The notes under the pieces are model-generated. The model made no database searches. It was not told where the DNA came from and saw only the letters and a program-made list of their open reading frames with translations. Of a DNA stretch of 59,011 nucleotides, positions 1,039 to 53,350 are shown piece by piece (the first letter of the stretch is position 1; each line of letters starts with the position of its first letter). The translations under genes were made by a program, and so were the position numbers. The DNA is from Solirubrobacteraceae bacterium (lineage in GTDB: Bacteria > Actinomycetota > Thermoleophilia > Solirubrobacterales > Solirubrobacteraceae), in contig JADGPK010000014.1 in assembly GCA_017882445.1 (NCBI GenBank), positions 1 through 59,011 on the forward strand, in the 5' to 3' direction.

Positions 1039-2312
1039 TGGCGCGTCCAACGACAGGCAGCGTGATCGAGCACCAGGGGCGCGACGGACGCACGTACAGG
1101 GCGCTGCGGTTCGTCGCCTACGGCAAGCGTCGGCACGTGTCGCTCGGGCCAGTGAGCGCCGAGGACGCGGAGCGTGAGCTGTCGCACGTCATCGCGGACG
1201 TGCAGCGCGGCAGGTGGAAGCCGGCGGCGGTCGAGGCGCCACCGGAGCCCACGCCCGTCCCGACGTTCGGTGTGTTCGCGATGGAGTGGTGGGCGCTCAC
1301 CAAAGACCAGCTGGCCCCGAGCACGCAGGCGGACTACTGGTGGCGGCTGACGGTCCACCTGGCGAAGTACTTCAACGAGCTGCGGCTCGACGCGATCACG
1401 TTCGACACGGTGGAGCGCTATATCGCCGCGAAGCTCGCGGAAGATGACCCGCTGTCGGCCAGGTCGATCAACATGACCGTGACGCTGCTGGGGGCGATTC
1501 TGGAGCGTGCTGTGGAGCGCGAGCTGATCGGACGCAACCCGGCGAAGGGGAAGGGCCGCAGGGTCCGCGAACGGGCGCCTACGCGGTCCTATCTGGACGC
1601 TGCGGGGCAGATCGTCGCGCTACTGAACGCGGCGGGCGAGCTGGACGGGACGGCACCCTCCAACCGTCAGCACGTCGAGCGCCGGGCGATGATCGCAACG
1701 CTCACGTTCGCGGGCCTTCGCATCGGGGAGATGTGCGCGCTGCGCTGGCGCGATGTCGACCTCGCCGGGGGATGGCTGCGCGTCGGGGAGTCCAAGACGG
1801 ACGCTGGACGGCGTCGGGTGAAGATCCGGGGTGCCCTGCGGGACGAGCTGCTTGCGGTCCGTGGGCGCCACCAGGACGCGCCGCAGAGCGCCTACGTGTT
1901 CGCCACGTCGGAGGGTGGCCGGCTGAGCCCGGACAACTTCCGATCACGGGTACTCGGCCGTCCGGCGACGATCGTGGACGGCGAGGAGAAGGCCGGCACG
2001 GGTGCGGTGGGCCGCGCGAACAAGCAGCTCGAGGCGGGGGGCCTGCCGCCGCTGCCGAAGCTCACACCGCACTCGCTGAGGCGCACGTTCGCCTCCCTGC
2101 TGTACGCGCTCGGCGAGGACCCCGGCGTCGTCATGGACGAGATGGGGCACACGGACCCGGCGTTGGCGCTCCGCGTCTACCGCCAGTCGATGCGCCGCGG
2201 CGACGGTGAGAAGGCGCAGCTGCAGGCCCTCGTGGAGGGCGGGATAGTGGCAGTCGGTGGCAGACGAGAGGAAAACACGACCGCCGAGCACTCCGCCAGC
2301 GAAGCCGCCTGA
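1038..2312 (+). CDS. int: tyrosine recombinase / phage-type integrase
   Basis: A site-specific recombinase of 424 residues that would catalyse integration and excision of the element. Residues 1-65 resemble an arm-binding N-terminal region. A SAM-like core-binding domain spans about 75-175. The catalytic domain shows GLRIGE with Arg228, a basic SKTDAGRRR strand, HSLRRT with His345 and Arg348, MGH, and the Tyr381 nucleophile in LRVYRQ. All expected catalytic residues are present, so it is probably active. ATG at 1038 is chosen because GGAGG lies 8 bases upstream and it overlaps the preceding stop; an in-frame upstream extension to 822 is noise over other genes. The gene points toward tRNA-Arg, the likely integration target. 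Confidence 0.92.
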   Translation: MARPTTGSVIEHQGRDGRTYRALRFVAYGKRRHVSLGPVSAEDAERELSHVIADVQRGRWKPAAVEAPPEPTPVPTFGVFAMEWWALTKDQLAPSTQADYWWRLTVHLAKYFNELRLDAITFDTVERYIAAKLAEDDPLSARSINMTVTLLGAILERAVERELIGRNPAKGKGRRVRERAPTRSYLDAAGQIVALLNAAGELDGTAPSNRQHVERRAMIATLTFAGLRIGEMCALRWRDVDLAGGWLRVGESKTDAGRRRVKIRGALRDELLAVRGRHQDAPQSAYVFATSEGGRLSPDNFRSRVLGRPATIVDGEEKAGTGAVGRANKQLEAGGLPPLPKLTPHSLRRTFASLLYALGEDPGVVMDEMGHTDPALALRVYRQSMRRGDGEKAQLQALVEGGIVAVGGRREENTTAEHSASEAA

Positions 2313-2315
2313 ATG

Positions 2316-2343
2316 AGAAAACCCCGCATTAGCAGGGCTTTCT
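2316..2343 (-). terminator. rho-independent terminator behind tRNA-Arg
   Basis: Read on the minus strand, CCCTGC and GCGGGG pair (one G-U) around a TAAT loop and are followed by TTTTCTC. On the plus strand the stem contains a C-A mismatch, so it works better for the tRNA than for the integrase, though it could serve both. If the integration model is right, this terminator is supplied by the element rather than by the original chromosome. Confidence 0.55.
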
Positions 2344-2347
2344 CCAG

Positions 2348-2420
<73 letters not shown>

Positions 2421-2506
2421 AGACGACGCCGCACGGACGACATCCCCGGGCTCGGAGCTTAGCGCCCCGCTGAGCAGCCGACCTGCCGCGTCGGGCGCTC
2501 CGTCGC

Positions 2507-2512
2507 TACCGT
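2507..2512 (+). promoter_or_regulatory. -10-like box TACCGT before rnz
   Basis: TACCGT ends 7 bases before the rnz ATG and there is no Shine-Dalgarno sequence, consistent with a leaderless transcript. No convincing -35 is seen. Confidence 0.35.
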
Positions 2513-2519
2513 TGCGAGC

Positions 2520-3515
2520 ATGGATCTGTCGCTGTTCTTCCTCGGCACCGCCGGGTCGGTTCCGAGCGCGCGCCGCGGGTTGCCCGCCGTGCTGGTCCGC
2601 CGCGGCGGCGACCGGCTGCTGTTCGACTGCGGCGAAGGCACCCAGCGCCAGCTGCTGCGCTCGGTCGGGCTCGTGGACCTCGACACCGTGTTCATCACCC
2701 ACTTCCATGCCGATCACTGGCTCGGGCTGCCGGGGATGCTGAAGTCCTTCGGCCTGCGCGAGCGCACCGAGCCGCTGACGGTGTACGGGCCGGCCGGGTT
2801 GAGCGAGCTGATGGGCGTGATGCGCGTCGTGTACGGCCGCCTGCCCTACGAGCTGAGCGTGGTCGAGCTCGAGCCCGCGCAGACGGTGGCCCGCGACGGT
2901 TATCTGATCGCAGCGGTTCCCGTGCGTCACAAGGGCGCGAGCTCGTTCGGCTACGCGCTCGTGGAGGAGCCGCGGCCCGGTCACCTGGACGCGCGCCTGG
3001 CCGAGGAGCTGGGCGTGAGGCCCGGACCGGACTTCGGCCGCCTGCAGCGCGGAGAGACGGTGGCGGGGGTCAAGCCCGAGCAGGTGATGGGACCGACCCG
3101 CGAGGGACGCAAGGTCGTGATCTCCGGTGACACGATTCCGTGCGACGCGCTGGCTCTGGCCGCGCACGAAGCCGACGTGCTCGTGCACGAGGCGACGTTC
3201 GCCGAGGAGGAGTCAGAGCGCGCACAGCAGACGCTTCACAGCACCGCGCGCCAGGCCGCCGAACTGGCACGCGACGCCGCCGTGCGTCTGCTCGCGCTCA
3301 CGCACGTCTCGAGCCGCTATCCCGGCGGCGAGCTCCGCGAGCAGGCCCGGGCGGTGTTCGCCGCCACCGAGGCGCCCCGTGACTTCGACACGATCGAGGT
3401 GCCCTTCCCGGAGCGCGGCGGCGCGACGCTCGTGCGCTGGTCAGAGCGTCAGGCGCGCGAGCGCGAGACGGGGGAGACGCTCCCGGCGCCGCGCGAGCCC
3501 GTCGCGTCCCCCTGA
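2520..3515 (+). CDS. rnz: ribonuclease Z
   Basis: A metallo-beta-lactamase-fold endonuclease of 331 residues that matures tRNA 3' ends, especially those lacking encoded CCA (as in the tRNA-Arg next door). The zinc motif HFHADHWLGLPG is near residues 61-72, further ligands occur in RHKGASSFGY, SGDT and HEATF, and a late His lies in LALTHVSSRY. Length and motif order fit the long-established bacterial RNase Z family. ATG at 2520 starts directly with the first beta strand. It lies just upstream of the pyr operon with 49 bases between. Confidence 0.9.
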   Translation: MDLSLFFLGTAGSVPSARRGLPAVLVRRGGDRLLFDCGEGTQRQLLRSVGLVDLDTVFITHFHADHWLGLPGMLKSFGLRERTEPLTVYGPAGLSELMGVMRVVYGRLPYELSVVELEPAQTVARDGYLIAAVPVRHKGASSFGYALVEEPRPGHLDARLAEELGVRPGPDFGRLQRGETVAGVKPEQVMGPTREGRKVVISGDTIPCDALALAAHEADVLVHEATFAEEESERAQQTLHSTARQAAELARDAAVRLLALTHVSSRYPGGELREQARAVFAATEAPRDFDTIEVPFPERGGATLVRWSERQARERETGETLPAPREPVASP

Positions 3516-3530
3516 TACATTTGGTGCTGC

Positions 3531-3563
3531 TCCTTTAACCCGGTCCCGCGAGGCCAGGAAGGA
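3531..3563 (+). promoter_or_regulatory. PyrR-binding stem-loop over the pyrR ribosome-binding site
   Basis: The core at 3542-3555, GGTCCCGCGAGGCC, matches the PyrR binding-loop consensus ARUCCNGNGAGGYU at all but the first and last base. It folds as GG/CC, a bulged U, then CC/GG around loop CGCGA. A lower stem pairs TCCTT (3531-3535) with AAGGA (3559-3563). That AAGGA is the pyrR Shine-Dalgarno sequence, so PyrR bound here would block translation. No terminator lies between, so translational repression, as known for mycobacterial PyrR, fits better than the attenuation seen in Bacillus. Confidence 0.75.
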
Positions 3564-3564
3564 A

Positions 3565-4128
3565 ATGATGGGAAGCAGCGAGAAAGTGGTCCTCCACGAG
3601 GAGGAGATCGGCCGGGCGCTGACGCGCATCGCGCACGAGATCCTCGAGCGCAACCCCCGCGAGCGTGTGCCGGCTCTGGTCGGGATCCACCGTCGGGGCG
3701 CCTTCCTCGCGCAGCGACTGCACGGGCTGCTGGAGGATCTGCTCGACACGGAGGTCCCGCTCGGCGATCTCGACATCGGCTTCTACCGCGACGATGTCTC
3801 CACCCGGCCGGACGCTCCGGTGGTGCACGCCTCGCACATCGACTTCGACGTGACCGGGCTGACGGTCGTGATCGTGGACGACGTCCTCTTCACCGGGCGC
3901 ACCGTTCGCGCCGCGATCGAGGCGCTGTTCGCCTACGGCCGGCCCGAGCGAGTGCAGCTGGCGGTGCTCGCCGACCGCGGTCACCGCGAGATCCCGATCC
4001 GTCCCGACTACGTGGGCAAGAACCTGCCGACCGCCCGGGCCGAGCACGTGCACGTTCGACTGCGCGAGCTCGACGGCGTCGATGAGGTCGCAATCGCAGC
4101 CCCCGCTGCGCTGGAGAGCCCCGCGTGA
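3565..4128 (+). CDS. pyrR: PyrR, pyrimidine operon RNA-binding regulator / uracil phosphoribosyltransferase
   Basis: A 187-residue type I phosphoribosyltransferase-fold protein. The PRPP-binding loop reads VVIVDDVLFTGRT near residues 92-104, and the N-terminal half has the usual RIAHEILER and GIHRRGAFLA segments. In this family uridine nucleotides promote binding to a conserved RNA loop in pyr mRNA; such a loop is visible immediately upstream. Start: ATG at 3565 (or 3568), 4-7 bases after AGGAAGGA. The gene ends in a GTGA overlap with pyrB, making it the first gene of the operon. Confidence 0.93.
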   Translation: MMGSSEKVVLHEEEIGRALTRIAHEILERNPRERVPALVGIHRRGAFLAQRLHGLLEDLLDTEVPLGDLDIGFYRDDVSTRPDAPVVHASHIDFDVTGLTVVIVDDVLFTGRTVRAAIEALFAYGRPERVQLAVLADRGHREIPIRPDYVGKNLPTARAEHVHVRLRELDGVDEVAIAAPAALESPA

Positions 4129-45721: not shown

Positions 45722-46618
45722 ATGAAGATCCTCGCGCTATTGGGGCCGACCGGCGTCGGCAAGACCGCCGTGGCGGTCGCGCTCGCCGAGCTCTTGCGCG
45801 CGCGCGGCGAGGACCCGGTGGCGGTGTCAGCGGACGCCCTGCAGGTGTACATGGGCCTGGAGACCCTCACGGGGGTGGCCTCCGCCGCCGAGCAGGCGCT
45901 CCTGGAGCACCGCCTGGTGGCCTTCCTGCCGAGCGACGCGACCTTCAGCGTCGGTGAGTACTCGCAGCTCGCCCACGCGGAGATCGACGGGCTGCTGGCG
46001 GCGGGCCGCAGGCCGATCGTGGTGGGCGGCACTGGCCTGTACGTGCGCGCCGCGCTCGGTGACCTCGATCTGCGCCCGCCGCCCCCGGAAGGCGTGCGCG
46101 AGCGCTGGACGAGCGTGCTCTCCCAGCGGGGGCCCGTCGCTCTCCACGCGGTGCTCGCACAGCGAGCCGGCTGGGCGGCTGAGGGGATCGACCCCAACGA
46201 CAGCCAGCGTCTAGTGCGCGCGCTCGAGCTCCTGGATCTCGGAGAGCTCGAGCCGCCCGAGGGTCCGTCACAGCTGTGGAGCAAGGAAATGCGTCATCCG
46301 ACGCTGCTGGCAGGGCTGACAATGGAGCGCGAGGCACTCTACGCCGCCATCGATGAGCGCGTGGAGGCGATGATCGCCGCGGGAGTCGTCGAGGAGGTGC
46401 GCCGCGCGCACGCGCTTGGCGCCTCGGAGACGGCGCGCAAGGCGCTCGGCTTTCGGGAGCTGCTGCTGGGCGACTCCGACATGATGAAGCGGCGCACACG
46501 CAACTACGCAAAGCGCCAGCTCACCTGGATGCGCAAGCTCGCAGGCGTGCGCACGATCAACGTGACCGGACGCGACGCGGTCGCCGTCGCGCACGAGATC
46601 CTAGACTCCGGCGCCTGA
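45722..46618 (+). CDS. miaA: tRNA dimethylallyltransferase
   Basis: Adds an isopentenyl group to A37 of tRNAs reading UNN codons, the substrate for MiaB. A protein of 298 residues. P-loop GPTGVGKTAVAVALAE, VSADALQVYMGLETLTG, VVGGTGLYVRA, GFRELL and NYAKRQLTWMRKL. ATG at 45722. It overlaps dapF by TGATG, giving the cluster miaA-dapF-dapL-hflX. Confidence 0.94.
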   Translation: MKILALLGPTGVGKTAVAVALAELLRARGEDPVAVSADALQVYMGLETLTGVASAAEQALLEHRLVAFLPSDATFSVGEYSQLAHAEIDGLLAAGRRPIVVGGTGLYVRAALGDLDLRPPPPEGVRERWTSVLSQRGPVALHAVLAQRAGWAAEGIDPNDSQRLVRALELLDLGELEPPEGPSQLWSKEMRHPTLLAGLTMEREALYAAIDERVEAMIAAGVVEEVRRAHALGASETARKALGFRELLLGDSDMMKRRTRNYAKRQLTWMRKLAGVRTINVTGRDAVAVAHEILDSGA

Positions 46619-47508
46619 TGGGATCGCTCCGATTCGAGAAGTGGCAGGCGCTGGGCAACGACTACCTGATCCTCGAGCGCGACGAGCTCCCGTTCGAGCT
46701 CACGCCCGCGCGCATCCGCAGGCTGTGCGCGGGCCACTTCGGCGTGTTCGCCGACGGCGTGTTGCTGCTCTCCCCGCCGACGGACCCGGCGAACGTGGCC
46801 GACCTGCGCATCTTCAATCCCGACGGCTCCGAGGCCGAGCTGTCGGGCAACGGCGCCCGCGAGGCGATCCTGTATCTGCGCCGGCGCGGCTGGACCGAAG
46901 AGGACAGCTTCTCGATCCACACGGTCGCGGGCGAGCTGCGCCCACGGATCACGGGACCGGATACCTGCACGGTGGACATGGGCAGCGCGAAGCTCAGCTC
47001 GCGCGACTTTCCCGGCGGTGGAGCGGACGGGCGCGGAGTGGTCGTGGCGGGCGGGCGCTCATGGAGCTTTCGCCACGTCTCGATCGGCAACCCCCAATGT
47101 GCGATCCACGTCGACTCCGAGGCTGAGCTTGCGGAGATCGACCTGAACGCCGTCGGCCCCTCGATCGAAGGCGACGGGCAGTTCCCGAACCGGACCAACG
47201 TGTCCTGGTACACGGAGCTCGAGCCGAGCTCGCCGGCCGGTCCCGCTCGCATACGCGCCCGCATATTCGAGCGGGGCGTGGGGGAGACGCTGTCCTCGGG
47301 CACCGGTGCGACAGGGGCAGCGGTCGCGCACGTCGAGGAGCACGGCAGGGACGCGGCAGGCGTGCGGGTCACGGTGCTGCTCGACGGAGGCGAGCTCGAG
47401 GTGGAGGTGGGTGAGGATCTGCACGTCAACCTGACAGGCTGGGCCAGACCCGTGTTCGAGGGTCGCCTCAGCGACGACTTCCAAAAGGAGCTGGATGAGA
47501 CCGAGTAA
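46618..47508 (+). CDS. dapF: DapF-like diaminopimelate epimerase lacking both catalytic cysteines
   Basis: A 296-residue protein of the PLP-independent racemase fold, with the two DapF half-domains recognisable: NPDGSEAELSGNGAR and FERGVGETLSSGTGA. Canonical DapF uses a Cys pair, one in AE-x-CGNG and one in CGTG, for two-base epimerisation of LL- to meso-diaminopimelate. Here both are Ser (Ser76, codon 46843-46845; Ser227, codon 47296-47298). Other conserved spots also differ: GNPQ for GNPH, GVFADG for G-I-GADG. The gene is otherwise intact, full length and in an operon with dapL. It could be a serine-based epimerase, have another substrate, or be inactive. Confidence 0.85.
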   Translation: MGSLRFEKWQALGNDYLILERDELPFELTPARIRRLCAGHFGVFADGVLLLSPPTDPANVADLRIFNPDGSEAELSGNGAREAILYLRRRGWTEEDSFSIHTVAGELRPRITGPDTCTVDMGSAKLSSRDFPGGGADGRGVVVAGGRSWSFRHVSIGNPQCAIHVDSEAELAEIDLNAVGPSIEGDGQFPNRTNVSWYTELEPSSPAGPARIRARIFERGVGETLSSGTGATGAAVAHVEEHGRDAAGVRVTVLLDGGELEVEVGEDLHVNLTGWARPVFEGRLSDDFQKELDETE

Positions 47509-48661
47509 GCGCCTGGAGCGCATCCCGCCGTACGCGTTCGCCCAGTTGGAGCGCAAGATCGCCGCCAAGCGGGAAGCGGGCGTGGATGTGATCAGCCTTG
47601 GCATCGGCGACCCCGATCGGCCGACCCCGCCGCTGATCGTGCAGGCCATGCAGGAGGCCGTCACCGAGGCCGAGACCCACCGCTACCCGTCCAACCGCGG
47701 ACGCGAGGACTTCCGCGGAGCCGTGCGCGACTTCTACGAGCGGCGCTTCGACGTGAAGCTCGACCCCGAGCGCGAGATCATCCCGGCGATCGGCGCAAAG
47801 GAGGCCATCTTCAACCTCAACCTCGCGTTCCTGGACCCCGGCGACTACGCGCTCGCCGCCGATCCCGGATATCCGGTCTACACGGGAGGCCCGTGGCTCG
47901 CGGGAGCCGAGCCGGTCCTGATGGCCCTCGAGCCCCAGCTCGGCTTCGTGCCTGACCTCGATGAAATCGACCCGGACGTGGCGAGCAGGACGAAGCTGAT
48001 GTACCTGAACTACCCCAACAACCCGACGGGGGCGGTCGTACCGGAGGGATTCTTCGAGCGGGTCGTCGAGTTCGCGCGCGAGCACGACATCCTCGTCGTC
48101 CACGACAACGCCTATTCGGAGATCACCTTCGACGGCTACCGGGCGCCGTCGTTCCTCGCCACGCCGGGCGCCAAGGATGTCGGCATCGAGGTCTTCTCGC
48201 TGTCGAAGGGCTACAACATGACCGGCTGGCGCTGCGCCGTGGTCCTCGGAAACGCCGAGGCGATCGAGATCTACTGGCAGCTGAAGACCAACATCGACTC
48301 GGGCCTGTTCGAGGCGGTCCAGCTCGCGGGCATCGCGGCGCTCTCGCCGGACGCCGACGCGGAGGTCGCCTCGATGAACGAGCTCTATCGTCGCCGGCGC
48401 GATCTCGTGTGCGACGCGCTGCATGCCATCGGCGTGGATGTGCGCCCGCCGCGCAGCACGATCTACGTCTGGGCACCGGTGCCGGACGGCTTTGAGAGCT
48501 CAGCGGCCTACTGCGAGCACGTGCTCGAGCAGGCCGGCGTGGTGCTCTCCCCAGGAGCGATCTACGGTCCCGCGGGGGAGGGCTGGTTCCGCATCTCGCT
48601 CACCACGCCCGACGATCGACTGCTGGAGGCGGTTCAGCGGCTTGGTGCCCTCGGCGGTTGA
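47495..48661 (+). CDS. dapL: LL-diaminopimelate aminotransferase (DapL type)
   Basis: A fold-type I PLP aminotransferase of 388 residues. It starts RLERIPPYAFAQLERKIA and has GIGDPDRPTP, AIGAKEAIF, YLNYPNNPTGA, the PLP Lys in SLSKGYNMTGWR and the Arg in WFRISLT. The N-terminus and SLSKGYNMTGWR are typical of DapL, which converts tetrahydrodipicolinate directly to LL-diaminopimelate. Overlap with dapF by 14 bases supports that role. Another class I aminotransferase specificity is possible. Confidence 0.85.
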   Translation: MRPSKRLERIPPYAFAQLERKIAAKREAGVDVISLGIGDPDRPTPPLIVQAMQEAVTEAETHRYPSNRGREDFRGAVRDFYERRFDVKLDPEREIIPAIGAKEAIFNLNLAFLDPGDYALAADPGYPVYTGGPWLAGAEPVLMALEPQLGFVPDLDEIDPDVASRTKLMYLNYPNNPTGAVVPEGFFERVVEFAREHDILVVHDNAYSEITFDGYRAPSFLATPGAKDVGIEVFSLSKGYNMTGWRCAVVLGNAEAIEIYWQLKTNIDSGLFEAVQLAGIAALSPDADAEVASMNELYRRRRDLVCDALHAIGVDVRPPRSTIYVWAPVPDGFESSAAYCEHVLEQAGVVLSPGAIYGPAGEGWFRISLTTPDDRLLEAVQRLGALGG

Positions 48662-48688: not shown

Positions 48689-50005
48689 ATGGATCGAAGC
48701 CGCAACGGTCGCAGCGCCGTCACGCCGACGCCCGCCGGCGTGGCTGGCGACAGCCTCGCGGCGTCCCAGCGCGCGCGCCAGCGCGCGTTCTGCATAGCCG
48801 CGCTGCCCGAAGGCGAAGACCTCGGCGAGCTGGGCGAGCTGCTGCGCACGGCCGGGGTGGCCGTGGTCGGCGAGATGGTCCAGCGGCGCGAGCTGGCCCA
48901 CCCGAACACCTACCTCGGACCGGGCAAGGTGCAGGAGGCGAAGGCAGCGGCGCAGGCATGCGACGCGAACGTGATCGCCTGCGACGACGAGCTGAGCGCG
49001 CGCCAGGAGCGCAACCTCGAGGAGGCGCTCGGCCTGCCGGTAGTCGATCGCACGACGGTGATCCTCGACATCTTCGCCTCCCACGCAGGCAGCGCGGAGG
49101 GCAAGCTTCAGGTCGAGCTCGCCCAGCTGGAGTACAACCTCGCGAGGATGCGCGGCCTGTGGAGCCACCTCGAGCGGCTGGGTGGAGGCATCGGCACGAG
49201 GGGACCGGGGGAGACGCAGATAGAGACAGATCGCCGCCTCGCGCGCGACCGGATCGCTGCGCTGCGCCGCCGCCTGGAGCACGTCAAGGGCACGCGCGCC
49301 GTGCAGCGCGCCGAGCGCGAGCGGGCGGCGCTGCCGACGATCGCGCTGGTCGGCTACACGAATGCCGGAAAGTCGACCCTGCTGAACGCCCTCACAGGCT
49401 CGGAGGTCGGTGTCCGCGACCGCCTGTTCCACACGCTCGACCCGACCACGCGCACGCTGCGCCTGAATGGCAGGCCCTATCTCCTCACGGACACGGTCGG
49501 CTTCATCAGCAAGCTGCCCCACCAGCTGATCGACGCGTTCGCCGCCACACTGGAGGAGACGCGCCGCGCCGAGCTGCTCGCCCACGTGCTCGACGCCTCG
49601 GCGCCTGAGGCGCATGCGGCGATCATGAAGAGCTCGGTCGAGCAGACCCTGGAGGAGATCGGCGCCGGCGAGCGTCCGCGCCTGTTGATCCTCAACAAGA
49701 TCGACCTGCTGGACTCAGAGGCGCGCGAGGAACTGCGCCTGCGCCACCCCGACGCGGTGCTCGTCAGCGGCGTGAGCGGCGAGGGGCTGCAGGAGCTCGG
49801 CGAGCGCATCGAGCTCGAGCTCCTGCACACGCTGCGTCGTGTCGAACTGCTCATTCCCTACGCCGACGGTGGCAGCCTGGCGGAGCTTCACGAGCTGGCG
49901 GGAGACGTCACCCGCGAGGACACCGCCGAGGGCGTGCTCGTGCGCGCGATGGTCCCGGCGCGTCTGGCGGAGCGCTTCGCGCGCTTCGCCCTGCAGACCC
50001 GCTGA
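48689..50005 (+). CDS. hflX: GTPase HflX
   Basis: A 50S-associated GTPase that splits stalled ribosomes. A protein of 438 residues. N-terminal HflX domain (NTYLGPGKVQEAK, DDELSARQERNLEEALG, VVDRTTVILDIFASHA), linker with GGGIGTRGPGETQIE, G-domain with GYTNAGKSTLLNALTG, DTVGFISKLPHQLI, NKIDLLD, and a C-terminal regulatory region. ATG at 48689. The mia-hflX link recalls the hfq-hflX neighbourhood of other bacteria. Confidence 0.94.
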   Translation: MDRSRNGRSAVTPTPAGVAGDSLAASQRARQRAFCIAALPEGEDLGELGELLRTAGVAVVGEMVQRRELAHPNTYLGPGKVQEAKAAAQACDANVIACDDELSARQERNLEEALGLPVVDRTTVILDIFASHAGSAEGKLQVELAQLEYNLARMRGLWSHLERLGGGIGTRGPGETQIETDRRLARDRIAALRRRLEHVKGTRAVQRAERERAALPTIALVGYTNAGKSTLLNALTGSEVGVRDRLFHTLDPTTRTLRLNGRPYLLTDTVGFISKLPHQLIDAFAATLEETRRAELLAHVLDASAPEAHAAIMKSSVEQTLEEIGAGERPRLLILNKIDLLDSEAREELRLRHPDAVLVSGVSGEGLQELGERIELELLHTLRRVELLIPYADGGSLAELHELAGDVTREDTAEGVLVRAMVPARLAERFARFALQTR

Positions 50006-50410: not shown

Positions 50411-51184
50411 CTATACGCCCGCGGCCCGGCGCGCGCTCAGGTGCGCCTCGCGCTCGAGTCCGTCCTCGAGCGGCGCGAGCCGCTCGGGCGCCACGGAGAG
50501 CGCGCGGGCGATCAGCCAGTCTGCGAACCAGACGTTCTTCGGTAACAGCGGCCCGTGCAGGTAGGTGCCGATTGTGTTGCCGCTCCTGGCGCCCTCGGCG
50601 CCGCTGCGGCCGTCGTTCCCGTAGCCCTTCAGGACCCGCCCGAGCGCCTCTTGGCCCTCGGCCAGACGGGTGCGTCCGCCGTGGTTCTCAAACCCGGCGA
50701 GCACCCGACGCCCGGCGCCGGGGCCAGCGTCATCGAGGGAGACATCGATCGCGACGTTGCCGATCAGGCGGGGTCCGTCCTCGCGCACGGTCGTCAGGTC
50801 CAGCAGCCCCACGCCCGGGATCTCCTCCTCGCCGAGCGTGTAGGAGTGCCCGAGCAGCTGGTAGCCGCCGCACACACCGAGCACGACCGCTCCGCGCGCC
50901 GCGGCCGCGTGCAGGCCGGCGCGCTTGTTCTCGATCAGATCCTCAGCGCACAGCCGCTGGTCGCGATCCTGGCCGCCGCCGATGTAGAAGAGGTCGTATG
51001 GCCGCTCGTCGAGCCGCTCTCCCAGCCCGCTGCTGGACAGCTCGAAGCCGATCCCGCGCCAGGCGCAGCGGCGCTCGAGCACGAGCAGGTTGCCGCGGTC
51101 GGCGTAGATGTTCATGAGGTCCGGGTAGAGCGCACACACGCGCAGCGGGGGGAACGTCTCGACCGCTGAAGCGGAGTCAGGCAC
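50411..51184 (-). CDS. gatD: lipid II isoglutaminyl synthase glutaminase subunit GatD
   Basis: A CobB/CobQ-like class I glutamine amidotransferase of 257 residues that supplies ammonia to MurT for amidating the D-Glu of lipid II. Catalytic Cys in GVCGGYQLLG, His in IGTYLHGPLLPKN, N-terminal LYPDLMNIYADRGN and IGGGQDRDQ typical of GatD. GTG 51184 overlaps the preceding methyltransferase gene by 8 bases. It ends the minus-strand operon. Separation from murT by another gene is unusual. Confidence 0.92.
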   Translation of the reverse strand: MPDSASAVETFPPLRVCALYPDLMNIYADRGNLLVLERRCAWRGIGFELSSSGLGERLDERPYDLFYIGGGQDRDQRLCAEDLIENKRAGLHAAAARGAVVLGVCGGYQLLGHSYTLGEEEIPGVGLLDLTTVREDGPRLIGNVAIDVSLDDAGPGAGRRVLAGFENHGGRTRLAEGQEALGRVLKGYGNDGRSGAEGARSGNTIGTYLHGPLLPKNVWFADWLIARALSVAPERLAPLEDGLEREAHLSARRAAGV

Positions 51185-51950
51185 GCAGCATCACCACCAC
51201 GCTGCCGACGTGATCCTCGGTCGCTGGAATCGAGCGGGTGCCGTCCGGCGACAGGCCCGCGTCGCGCCCCTCACGCAGGAGGCCGGAAGCGGTGAGACGA
51301 TCGAGCTCGACGATGTCGTGCTCGCGCAGCGGGTCGGCCGTTTGCGCGCCGTGTTTGGGCGCGAGCACGCTGCGCTCACGCTCGATGCGGATCCTGCACC
51401 TGTCAACGGAGACCCGCACGGCGCGGCTGACGTACGTCGTCCCCTCGACCCGCACCGTCTCTGAGAGCGGCCCGTCCTCTTCCGCGGTGGCGTCGAAGAC
51501 CTCGAGCTCGGTGACGATCGCACAGGCGAGCAGTCCGCCCGGCCGCAGGTGCGCGCGCGCCCTGTCAAGGAACGCTGCGCGGCCCGTCGGCCCACCGAGC
51601 AGCTGGATGGTCTGCATAGGCGCGAGGCACACCGCGTAGTCGCGGCGCGTCAGCGCGAAGATGCGAGCGTCCGCGCACACCGTCTCCAAGGGGCTAGCCA
51701 CGGCCCGTTCGCCGAGCGCTCCGAGCAGCGCGGGCTGGAGGTCGAGCGCGGTCACGCGATGGCCCCTGCGGGCGAGATCGAGCGCCACGCGGCCCGTGCC
51801 CGCGCCGACCTCGAGGATCGACGCCGGTGGCGAGCCGGGCTGGACCGCAGCGGCGAGCTCGCGCCACAGGGGAAGGTCGGCGCGGTAGGCGCCGCACTCG
51901 AGGTCGTGCCAGATCACCTCACGGGCTGGGCGGGGTGGGGCTAGGACCAT
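51177..51950 (-). CDS. SAM-dependent methyltransferase between murT and gatD
   Basis: A 257-residue class I methyltransferase. It begins EVIWHDLECGAYRADLPLW, motif I is ILEVGAGTGRVALDLA, then an acidic end of strand 2 (VTALDLQ), CADAR and a motif IV region LAPMQTIQLLGG. ATG 51950 overlaps the murT stop by 10 bases and its end overlaps gatD by 8 bases, so it is translated as part of the murT-gatD operon. No membrane helix. The substrate is unknown; a peptidoglycan precursor is an attractive inference from position alone. The long upstream extension of this frame is antisense noise in murT. Confidence 0.88.
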   Translation of the reverse strand: MVLAPPRPAREVIWHDLECGAYRADLPLWRELAAAVQPGSPPASILEVGAGTGRVALDLARRGHRVTALDLQPALLGALGERAVASPLETVCADARIFALTRRDYAVCLAPMQTIQLLGGPTGRAAFLDRARAHLRPGGLLACAIVTELEVFDATAEEDGPLSETVRVEGTTYVSRAVRVSVDRCRIRIERERSVLAPKHGAQTADPLREHDIVELDRLTASGLLREGRDAGLSPDGTRSIPATEDHVGSVVVMLRA

Positions 51951-53350
51951 GCGCTGCTCGCCTCCCCGCGCGCCACGAGCAGGTCCCTGAGCGCGAGCAT
52001 CGCGGTATAGGTCGGAAGCGCATACAGCGGGCGGGCTGCTCCCCCGGCGCGGCTCGCGGCAGCCTCCCGCAGGGCGGCGGGGAGGTCGCCCTGCACGTGG
52101 ATGGCGGCGGGGTCGACCCCGGCGTACTTCAGACGGACCGCCAGGTCGGCGGCTCGCGTGCCGCTGCAGGTGACCCGTCGTATGCGTCCGGCGAGCAGCT
52201 CGAAGTCGGCGTCCCAGATCCAGGACACGTCGCGCCCGTCGGCGATCTGGTCGTTGAGAACCCCCAGCAGGTCGTGCTCGCCTGGCTCGAGCGCGAGCGT
52301 CCGCAGCACCTCGTTGGCGCCGGCCGGGTTCTTGACGAGCATGATTCGCAGCTCGCGGCCCTCGGCGGGCGCCCCTGCCCCAGCGTGGATCGCGAGCGTG
52401 ACGGTCTCGGCGCGCCCGAAGGCGGCCTTCGTGCTCGCGAGCCCGGCGACGATCGTCTCGAACGGGATCTCGAGCGCGGTCGCAAGCGCGGCGGCGGCGA
52501 GGGCGTTGTAGACGTTGTAGAGGCCGGGAAGCGCGAGGGACACCTCGGCCTGGCCGCCGGGCGTGTGTAGCACGAAGCGGGCCGAGCGGACACCTTCCAG
52601 TCGCACGTCGGTGGCCGTGACGGCCGGTTGGGGCCTGGACCGGCCGCAGCTGGGACAGTGGTAGTGGCCGAGATGGCCGAGATAGACCGCGTCGAACACG
52701 TAGGGAGCTCCGCAGCGGCGGCAGTGCTTGGTGTCGGCCGCGTGCGCCATCCCCGCGAGCGCCTGCGTGTCGTCGTCCATGCCGAAGTACAGGGCGCTCG
52801 CCTGATCGCGGCCGAGGTCCGCGATCAGCGGGTCGTCGGCGTTGAGGACCAGCTGCGCGCCACCGGCTGAGAGCACCCGCTCCCAGCTTTCGGCGATCGT
52901 CTCGAGCTCCCCGTAACGGTCGAGCTGGTCGCGGAACAGGTTGCTCAAAAGGATCGCGCGCGGACGCAGCTGCTTGGCGAGCTCGGCCAGCCACAGCTCG
53001 TCGACCTCGAACAGGCCGATCTCACCCGCGATCCCTCCGCCCGGACGGGCCGCGCTCAGCAGCGACGCGGCGATACCGCCGGCCATGTTGGCGCCCGCCT
53101 GGTTGTGCACGAGCGGGATGCCGGCGTGCTGGAGGATCTGTGAGGCCATCGCCGCTGTGGTCGTCTTGCCGTTGGTCGCCGAGATCAGCACGCAGCCGCG
53201 CCCGAGGCGCGCGCCGAGGGCGGCGATCGCGTTCGGCGCCAGGCGCATGAGGACCCTGCCCGGGGCGCTCGTCGCGCCGCCCCCGCGCATTCGCGAGAGT
53301 GCGCCCACCGCCCGCGCCAGCGCGAGCTTGACCGCGAGGGTATCCGCCAT
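51941..53350 (-). CDS. murT: lipid II isoglutaminyl synthase subunit MurT
   Basis: A Mur-ligase-like ATPase of 469 residues that with GatD amidates the D-glutamate of lipid II. Central domain P-loop SATNGKTTTAAM, FEVDELWLAEL, LSNLFRDQLDRYGE; a four-cysteine zinc ribbon C-RR-C ... C-PS-C characteristic of MurT; NVYNALAAAALA; C-terminal DUF1727 domain with LVKNPAGANEVLR and the Asp in WIWDADFELL. ATG overlaps the stop of the lipid kinase gene (ATGA). Confidence 0.93.
   Translation of the reverse strand: MADTLAVKLALARAVGALSRMRGGGATSAPGRVLMRLAPNAIAALGARLGRGCVLISATNGKTTTAAMASQILQHAGIPLVHNQAGANMAGGIAASLLSAARPGGGIAGEIGLFEVDELWLAELAKQLRPRAILLSNLFRDQLDRYGELETIAESWERVLSAGGAQLVLNADDPLIADLGRDQASALYFGMDDDTQALAGMAHAADTKHCRRCGAPYVFDAVYLGHLGHYHCPSCGRSRPQPAVTATDVRLEGVRSARFVLHTPGGQAEVSLALPGLYNVYNALAAAALATALEIPFETIVAGLASTKAAFGRAETVTLAIHAGAGAPAEGRELRIMLVKNPAGANEVLRTLALEPGEHDLLGVLNDQIADGRDVSWIWDADFELLAGRIRRVTCSGTRAADLAVRLKYAGVDPAAIHVQGDLPAALREAAASRAGGAARPLYALPTYTAMLALRDLLVARGEASSAWS

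What the first reader, a model, noticed from the sequence alone, without database searches (positions are those of the whole stretch)
46618..47508. DapF with both catalytic cysteines replaced by serine, in an operon with dapL
Known DapF enzymes need two cysteines acting as paired acid and base. Here both positions, Ser76 in AELSGNG and Ser227 in LSSGTG, are TCG serine codons while the surrounding loops, length and operon are preserved. GNPQ for GNPH and GVFADG for GIGADG are further departures. Paired loss with an intact frame argues against random decay. It may be a serine-based or otherwise altered epimerase, an enzyme with a new substrate, or a dead epimerase in a lineage whose wall uses LL-diaminopimelate.
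Basis: partly seen in the sequence, partly recalled or inferred. Interest (0 to 1): 0.75.

Follow-up and report, generated by a model that had tools for sequence, protein, structure and literature searches.

The report
Epimerase with both catalytic cysteines serine
A cell-wall and lysine enzyme that is thought to need two cysteines carries serines instead in a whole group of soil bacteria that still need its product, so it may be a natural cysteine-free version of the enzyme.

Summary
The window's dapF (46618-47508) encodes Ser76 and Ser227 where DapF has its catalytic cysteines, and no other DAP-epimerase-family gene was found in its genome. It is neither decay nor one odd genome: 58 of 58 genomes of the order read at residue level are Ser/Ser, as are 79 of 80 related contigs; the other is Ser/Gly. 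Nine named strains each show one DapF gene. The gene sits in the miaA-dapF-dapL operon, as Cys/Cys orthologues do, and its DAP-binding residues are kept. The order's wall is reported to contain meso-DAP (PMC3035278). LysA and MurE are present; Ddh and proline racemase were not found in 41 relatives. So meso-DAP must be made, and this protein is the only candidate found.

Serine at one or both sites, with no Cys/Cys copy found, also occurs in 11 of 33 other actinomycete families sampled. Best reading: a working LL-DAP epimerase using serine hydroxyls in place of thiols. Against it: engineered Cys-to-Ser enzymes of this fold are nearly dead. Natural Ser/Cys hydroxyproline epimerases exist, so this is a new variant, not a new kind. 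Activity is untested.

The parts
46618..47508 (+). dapF orthologue, 296 aa, Ser/Ser/Gln in place of Cys/Cys/His
46843..46845 (+). codon of Ser76 (TCG), position of the first catalytic cysteine
   Evidence: alignments
47095..47097 (+). codon of Gln160 (GNPQ instead of GNPH), Gln in all 110 order-level sequences read
47296..47298 (+). codon of Ser227 (TCG), position of the second catalytic cysteine
   Evidence: alignments
45722..46618 (+). miaA, upstream gene; its stop codon overlaps the dapF start by one base
   Evidence: start taken at MKILALLGPTG; the name is recalled, no family search was run on it
47495..48661 (+). dapL, LL-diaminopimelate aminotransferase, overlaps the end of dapF by 14 bases
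   Evidence: NF006756 539.1 over its cut-off 507; TIGR03540 515.5, under its cut-off 593.25
48689..50005 (+). hflX-like GTPase gene, frequent downstream neighbour
   Evidence: the name is recalled

Best explanation
The protein is the vertically inherited DapF of Solirubrobacterales and most likely still makes meso-DAP from LL-DAP, with Ser76 and Ser227 standing where the cysteine pair stands. Shown: the substitutions, their conservation, that no other DapF was found, the intact DAP-contact residues, the orthologous operon, and the presence of the meso-DAP consumers LysA and MurE. Inferred: that it is catalytically active; that each serine hydroxyl, beside the Gly-Asn-Gly and Gly-Thr-Gly loops that hold the alpha-carboxylate, takes or delivers the alpha-proton when the domains close around DAP; and that the pair was lost because a thiol pair can be oxidised to a disulfide that shuts the enzyme (reported for the Corynebacterium enzyme, PMC5296763, passages), which a hydroxyl pair cannot.
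For: Only PF01678 gene found in the own genome and in 9 of 9 named strains (two domain hits each, side by side). A homologue in 61 of 61 genomes of the order, no stop inside any match; 46 of these 61 were read at residue level, and 58 of 58 order genomes read are Ser/Ser/Gln. The ten DAP-contact positions taken from PMC12039745 are kept in every sole copy read, apart from Thr/Ser at 229, one alignment gap and one unreadable row. Internal control: nine Ser/Ser second copies (one clade) in genomes that hold another DapF lose contacts (Asn158 to Thr or Ser 7 of 9, Gly228 to Ala 9 of 9, Thr229 to Ala 6 of 9). Same gene order as Cys/Cys relatives: miaA upstream in 86 of 98 Ser/Ser/Gln loci with room and 34 of 38 Cys/Cys; dapL downstream in 79 of 98 and 35 of 37. 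LysA over the cut-off in 19 of 21 relatives, MurE in 19 of 21, the own genome in both. Ddh over the cut-off in 0 of 41 relatives (3 weak partial matches) and in 1 of 150 class genomes, that one with a Cys/Cys DapF (L182). Proline-racemase family 0 of 41. Meso-DAP reported for the order (PMC3035278). Serine codons at 227 are of both kinds, TCN 87 and AGY 20 of 108, while the residue stays Ser. The change recurs: on a 138-row tree built without these columns, site 1 needs 8 changes (at least 5 forced by starred branches) and site 2 needs 8 (at least 4 forced, one of the 8 being Ser/Gly); the rows include second copies. Precedent: in the proline racemase superfamily a 4-hydroxyproline 2-epimerase with Ser93 facing a cysteine and a dehydratase with Ser90 facing Thr256 (PMC4113996, passages; the text and a figure legend number the cysteine differently).
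Against: No activity was measured. Cys-to-Ser mutants of PddB keep less than 0.1% of activity, and that paper says the same of M. tuberculosis DapF (PMC8225329, passages); Fusobacterium HisR C67S and C209S are greatly reduced (PMC11602996, passages). A serine hydroxyl (pKa about 16, PMC8225329) is a poor match for a thiolate base. In the order the GNPH histidine is also gone (Gln in 110 of 110). One sequence has Gly at the second site (L074, on a 3,036-base contig), which if real would make the second hydroxyl dispensable. The second-copy control is one clade, and of two other Ser/Ser second copies one (L178) keeps all ten contacts (Ser at 229) while one (L181) loses two. No structure could be predicted, so the geometry is untested. 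DapF outside Actinomycetota was not sampled. An unknown, non-homologous DAP epimerase cannot be excluded.
Confidence: 0.6

Rival explanations
1. Pseudoenzyme: the protein binds DAP but does not epimerise it (for example as a sensor or a partner of DapL), and an unidentified enzyme makes meso-DAP.
For: Both acid/base residues and the nearby histidine are gone; engineered Ser mutants are nearly dead. The own genome seems to have rewired another wall stereochemistry step: no MurI-type racemase match and a MurL-like epimerase beside murD.
Against: No second DapF, no Ddh over the cut-off, no proline-racemase-family match, and two Ala_racemase_N matches in the own genome, one strong and one weak. 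Cys/Ser and Ser/Cys forms are the only DapF found in 27 genomes of 9 other families, each of which would need its own replacement enzyme if one serine were fatal.
Confidence: 0.19
2. Altered chemistry or substrate: the pocket now catalyses another reaction on DAP or a DAP derivative, such as an elimination or a one-base isomerisation.
For: In the proline racemase superfamily a Ser/Thr member is a dehydratase (PMC4113996). Order-specific changes: Gln160, Ser196 for Glu, Gly233 for Ala; whether 196 and 233 face the pocket was not tested.
Against: All DAP contacts at both ends of the substrate are kept, dapL is adjacent, and meso-DAP is still required.
Confidence: 0.09
3. Weak epimerase: residual activity of a fraction of a percent is enough in slow-growing cells, so the serines are tolerated rather than used as efficient catalysts.
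For: Faint residual activity of Ser mutants. Slow growth of these bacteria is recalled, not tested.
Against: Ser is kept in 109 of 109 rows at site 1 and 108 of 109 at site 2 rather than drifting among small residues.
Confidence: 0.11

Closest known systems
DapF, diaminopimelate epimerase (TIGR00652, PF01678)
   Same: Sequence family, length, tandem domains, all ten DAP-contact residues, operon with the DAP-pathway gene dapL, only copy found.
   Different: Both catalytic cysteines are serine and GNPH is GNPQ in 109 of 110 order-level sequences; the other is Ser/Gly.
Ser/Cys 4-hydroxyproline 2-epimerase B9JQV3 and Ser/Thr trans-3-hydroxyproline dehydratase B9K4G4 (PMC4113996, passages)
   Same: A natural serine at the first cysteine position of a cofactor-independent enzyme of the DapF-like fold, functionally assigned with structures.
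   Different: Another family (PF05544) and substrate; the epimerase there keeps one cysteine, here none is left.
PddB (2,4-diaminobutyrate racemase) and HisR, DapF-like racemases
   Same: DapF-like fold and two-base scheme; their Cys-to-Ser mutants are the engineered counterpart.
   Different: They use Cys/Cys and lose nearly all (PddB) or much (HisR) activity when either becomes Ser.
Aspartate/glutamate racemase Ecl-DER with Cys/Thr (PMC8142540, passages)
   Same: A hydroxyl residue replaces one of the paired cysteines.
   Different: Other structural class (glutamate racemase-like), one cysteine kept, irreversible in one direction.

Membership tests
DapF (TIGR00652 / PF01678) | Sequence family score over the curated cut-off | tested here: met
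   TIGR00652 179.7 against 114.65; PF01678 126.6 against 34.7, two stretches.
DapF (TIGR00652 / PF01678) | DAP-contact residues at proximal and distal ends | tested here: met
   Asn14, Asn67, Gly77, Asn78, Asn158, Asn194, Glu218, Arg219, Gly228, Thr229 all present and conserved (roles from PMC12039745, passages).
DapF (TIGR00652 / PF01678) | Two catalytic cysteines | tested here: not met
   Ser76 and Ser227. Hence it is called a DapF orthologue of non-canonical type, not a regular DapF.
DapF (TIGR00652 / PF01678) | Orthologous gene position | tested here: met
   miaA-dapF-dapL in both types.
DapF (TIGR00652 / PF01678) | LL-DAP epimerase activity | not testable with these tools
   Needs an enzyme assay.
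Bifunctional DapF/glutamate racemase (NF038284) | Score over the model's cut-off | tested here: not met
   43.7 against 350.
Proline racemase superfamily (PF05544) | Sequence family match | tested here: not met
   Only PF01678 matches.

The most novel reading that the evidence does not exclude
Actinomycetota have repeatedly converted an essential two-cysteine epimerase into Cys/Ser, Ser/Cys and fully thiol-free Ser/Ser forms that still make meso-DAP. The Solirubrobacterales enzyme would be a cofactor-independent DapF-fold epimerase without any catalytic thiol, a kind that none of my literature searches listed, and immune to the disulfide switch that turns off Cys/Cys DapF.
Probability: 0.5. 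Interest if true: 0.78.

Novelty: new variant of a known kind. Interest (0 to 1): 0.62.

Why it matters
The rule that DapF needs a cysteine pair is used to explain how a weakly acidic alpha-proton is removed without a cofactor and to design thiol-reactive inhibitors. If Ser/Ser DapF is active, the rule fails for the sampled members of a whole order and is loosened in 11 of the 33 other actinomycete families sampled, and natural Cys/Cys, Cys/Ser, Ser/Cys and Ser/Ser orthologues give a ready series for testing how such enzymes tune proton transfer. If it is inactive, an unknown meso-DAP-forming enzyme awaits discovery in common soil bacteria.

Tried and rejected
Rejected: sequencing error or one odd genome (58 of 58 order genomes read, 79 of 80 contig loci, named strains among them). 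Rejected: gene decay (no stop inside any match in 61 genomes; dN/dS by NG86 0.08-0.61 in 58 Ser/Ser pairs and 0.12-0.26 in 11 Cys/Cys pairs above 78% identity; most values over 0.4 come from Conexibacter and its nearest kin, with low dS). Rejected: a hidden Cys/Cys second copy; the extra weak match in G171 looks PhzF-like by eye (no family search). Rejected: LL-DAP wall. Rejected: Ddh bypass. Corrected: my first table (repeated) read the residue before the second cysteine and so listed false 'Ser/Ala' types; one search uses the right column. Not leaned on: that Ser was reached each time by chance from Cys codons (2 of 7 one-step changes) looks unlikely, but if only small residues are allowed (Ser or Gly) the argument is weak (my arithmetic, no call). 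Not done: a control outside Actinomycetota (searches failed), a structure model, supplementary files.

Full report
What is there. The frame at 46618-47508 (+) encodes a 296-residue protein that passes the DapF equivalog model (179.7 bits, cut-off 114.65) and has the two PF01678 repeats. Aligned to three solved DapFs, Ser76 and Ser227 fall on the two catalytic cysteines. The histidine of GNPH is Gln160. The gene is tightly packed: miaA ends on the first base of its start codon, and dapL starts 14 bases before its end. The window lies on contig C229 of a 3.27-Mb, 234-contig genome (94.9% complete) in which one PF01678 gene was found. Its nearest titled relatives are Solirubrobacterales MAGs and Conexibacter.

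How far it reaches. A homologue was found in 61 of 61 genomes of the same order. At residue level 58 order genomes were read (46 of those 61 and 12 from the class draw), all Ser/Ser/Gln. So were 79 of 80 related contig loci, the other being Ser/Gly/Gln; together these are 110 distinct sequences. The 80 contig loci are the best 80 of 167 by similarity to the window, and not all carry Solirubrobacterales in the title, but the 38 Ser/Ser/Gln rows and the Ser/Gly row put on a 95-row tree form one supported group. Outside the order, 104 of 112 class genomes matched (the eight without a match are all outside the order), and 54 genomes were read. These are 38 Cys/Cys (one with two copies, one unreadable at site 1), 3 Ser/Cys, 11 Ser/Ser/His (10 of family f7, 1 of f11), and 2 with a Cys/Cys and a divergent Ser/Ser copy. 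Strains with Ser/Ser include Conexibacter arvalis, Conexibacter sp. DBS9H8, Solirubrobacter soli, Patulibacter medicamentivorans, Svornostia abyssi and Paraconexibacter antarcticus; in nine named strains one DapF gene each was found.

Beyond the class, 197 genomes of the phylum draw were searched (19 of them from the class) and 185 matched. DapF was read in 99 genomes outside the class. They were picked from the listed, higher-scoring matches, and the regions were chosen after the first types were known, so shares of genomes are not estimates. Result: 62 Cys/Cys, 21 Cys/Ser, 6 Ser/Cys, 1 Ser/Ser (G339, whose matched stretch holds one in-frame TGA), 8 with a Cys/Cys and a Ser/Ser copy, 1 with a Ser/Cys and a Ser/Ser copy. 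A second match in G358 was not read. By family, 11 of 33 hold at least one genome in which no Cys/Cys copy was found. On a 138-row tree built without the three columns, site 1 needs 8 changes (at least 5 forced by starred branches) and site 2 needs 8 (at least 4 forced), one of the latter being the Ser/Gly of L074. Deep branches are weakly supported and the root is not known; the direction Cys to Ser rests on the Cys state of the solved enzymes.

Why it is not decay. Mean pairwise identity is 64% (500 random pairs of 109 rows), yet Ser76 is kept in 109 of 109 and Ser227 in 108 of 109; 15 of the 20 serines of the window protein are kept in 1 to 89 of 109. Position 227 uses TCN codons in 87 and AGY codons in 20 of 108 rows, so the residue is held while the codon box changed, or was reached more than once. 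The ten residues that bind DAP in the Anabaena structure (PMC12039745, passages) are unchanged in the 108 Ser/Ser/Gln sequences apart from one alignment gap. The data offer a control: nine Ser/Ser second copies, all one clade, in genomes with another DapF have lost Asn158 (7 of 9), Gly228 (9 of 9) and often Thr229 (6 of 9). Of two further second copies, L181 lost two contacts and L178 none. So the control supports the point but is few in number.

Same gene, same place. miaA lies directly upstream in 86 of 98 Ser/Ser/Gln loci with enough sequence and in 34 of 38 Cys/Cys loci; dapL directly downstream in 79 of 98 and 35 of 37. In the Ser/Ser/His loci dapL is adjacent in only 3 of 12. So the Ser/Ser protein of the order is the orthologue of ordinary DapF, not a stray paralogue.

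Is meso-DAP still needed? Yes, by three lines. The order's wall is reported to contain meso-DAP (PMC3035278, passage; a Solirubrobacter strain in PMC10722151, passages). LysA, which decarboxylates meso-DAP (established knowledge), is over the cut-off in 19 of 21 relatives; the own copy scores 420.6 against 297.9. MurE is over the cut-off in 19 of 21; the own copy passes a DAP-ligase model (515.2 against 373), not the lysine-ligase model (293.8 against 536), and has DNPR (the meaning of DNPR is recalled). Other routes were looked for. Ddh was over the cut-off in 0 of 41 relatives (with 3 weak partial matches) and in 1 of 150 class genomes, a Cys/Cys one. The proline racemase family was found in 0 of 41. 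The own genome has no Asp/Glu racemase match and two Ala_racemase_N matches, one strong and one weak. None of these tests can exclude an unknown enzyme, and the own genome is not complete.

How it may work. In DapF the alpha-carbon sits between the two catalytic residues, with the carboxylate held by Gly-Asn and Gly-Thr backbone groups at helix N-termini (PMC12039745). All of those residues are kept. The simplest reading is that serine hydroxyls do the proton transfer. The main objection is chemical: engineered Cys-to-Ser enzymes of this fold retain less than 0.1% (PMC8225329) or are greatly reduced (PMC11602996). The main support is natural: a Ser/Cys hydroxyproline 2-epimerase and a Ser-based dehydratase (PMC4113996, passages), and Cys/Ser or Ser/Cys DapFs as the only DapF found in 27 genomes here. 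A stepwise path through single-serine forms is therefore plausible. A possible advantage, inferred, is freedom from the oxidative disulfide that closes the Corynebacterium enzyme (PMC5296763, passages).

Known or new. Literature searches (within an open-access library) listed no paper that by title or start of abstract deals with a natural Ser/Ser or Cys/Ser DapF; apart from the papers cited above by passage, only listings and abstract starts were seen. A defining feature of DapF, the cysteine pair, is not met, so I call it a DapF orthologue of non-canonical type: a new variant of a known kind. The step that would settle it is a simple enzyme assay.

Noticed in passing
L332:3607-4983 (-) and 2289-3635 (-) (own genome, contig C186); L334 (G002): The own genome has no MurI-type racemase match and no murD where it is expected in its dcw cluster (by eye), but carries a MurL-like UDP-MurNAc-L-Ala-L-Glu epimerase (434 bits, under that model's cut-off of 700) beside a murD. 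A similar pair is seen by eye in G002. D-glutamate may enter the wall by the MurD2-MurL route.
   Followed up: partly
window 50411-51184 (-) and about 51941-53314 (-): GatD- and MurT-like genes (153.7 and 246.6 bits, under the curated cut-offs), a likely lipid II amidation pair, a few kilobases downstream of dapF-dapL.
   Followed up: partly
L254, L256, L258, L301, L303, L304, L305, L306, L307: Families f25/f39 carry a second DapF with Ser/Ser and SATG or SAAG in place of CGTG beside a Cys/Cys (8) or Ser/Cys (1) copy: a separate paralogue that may have another function.
   Followed up: partly
L181 (G163) and L178 (G105): Two further divergent second copies with Ser/Ser beside a Cys/Cys copy; L181 has SANG and GVPF in place of CGNG and GNPH.
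   Followed up: no
L093: A record titled Bifidobacterium breve MAG encodes a DapF of the Solirubrobacterales type (64% identity to the window); the title looks wrong or the bin is contaminated.
   Followed up: no
L074:1805-2659: Only order-level sequence with Gly at the second catalytic site (TAGGTG); on a 3,036-base contig, so an error is possible.
   Followed up: no
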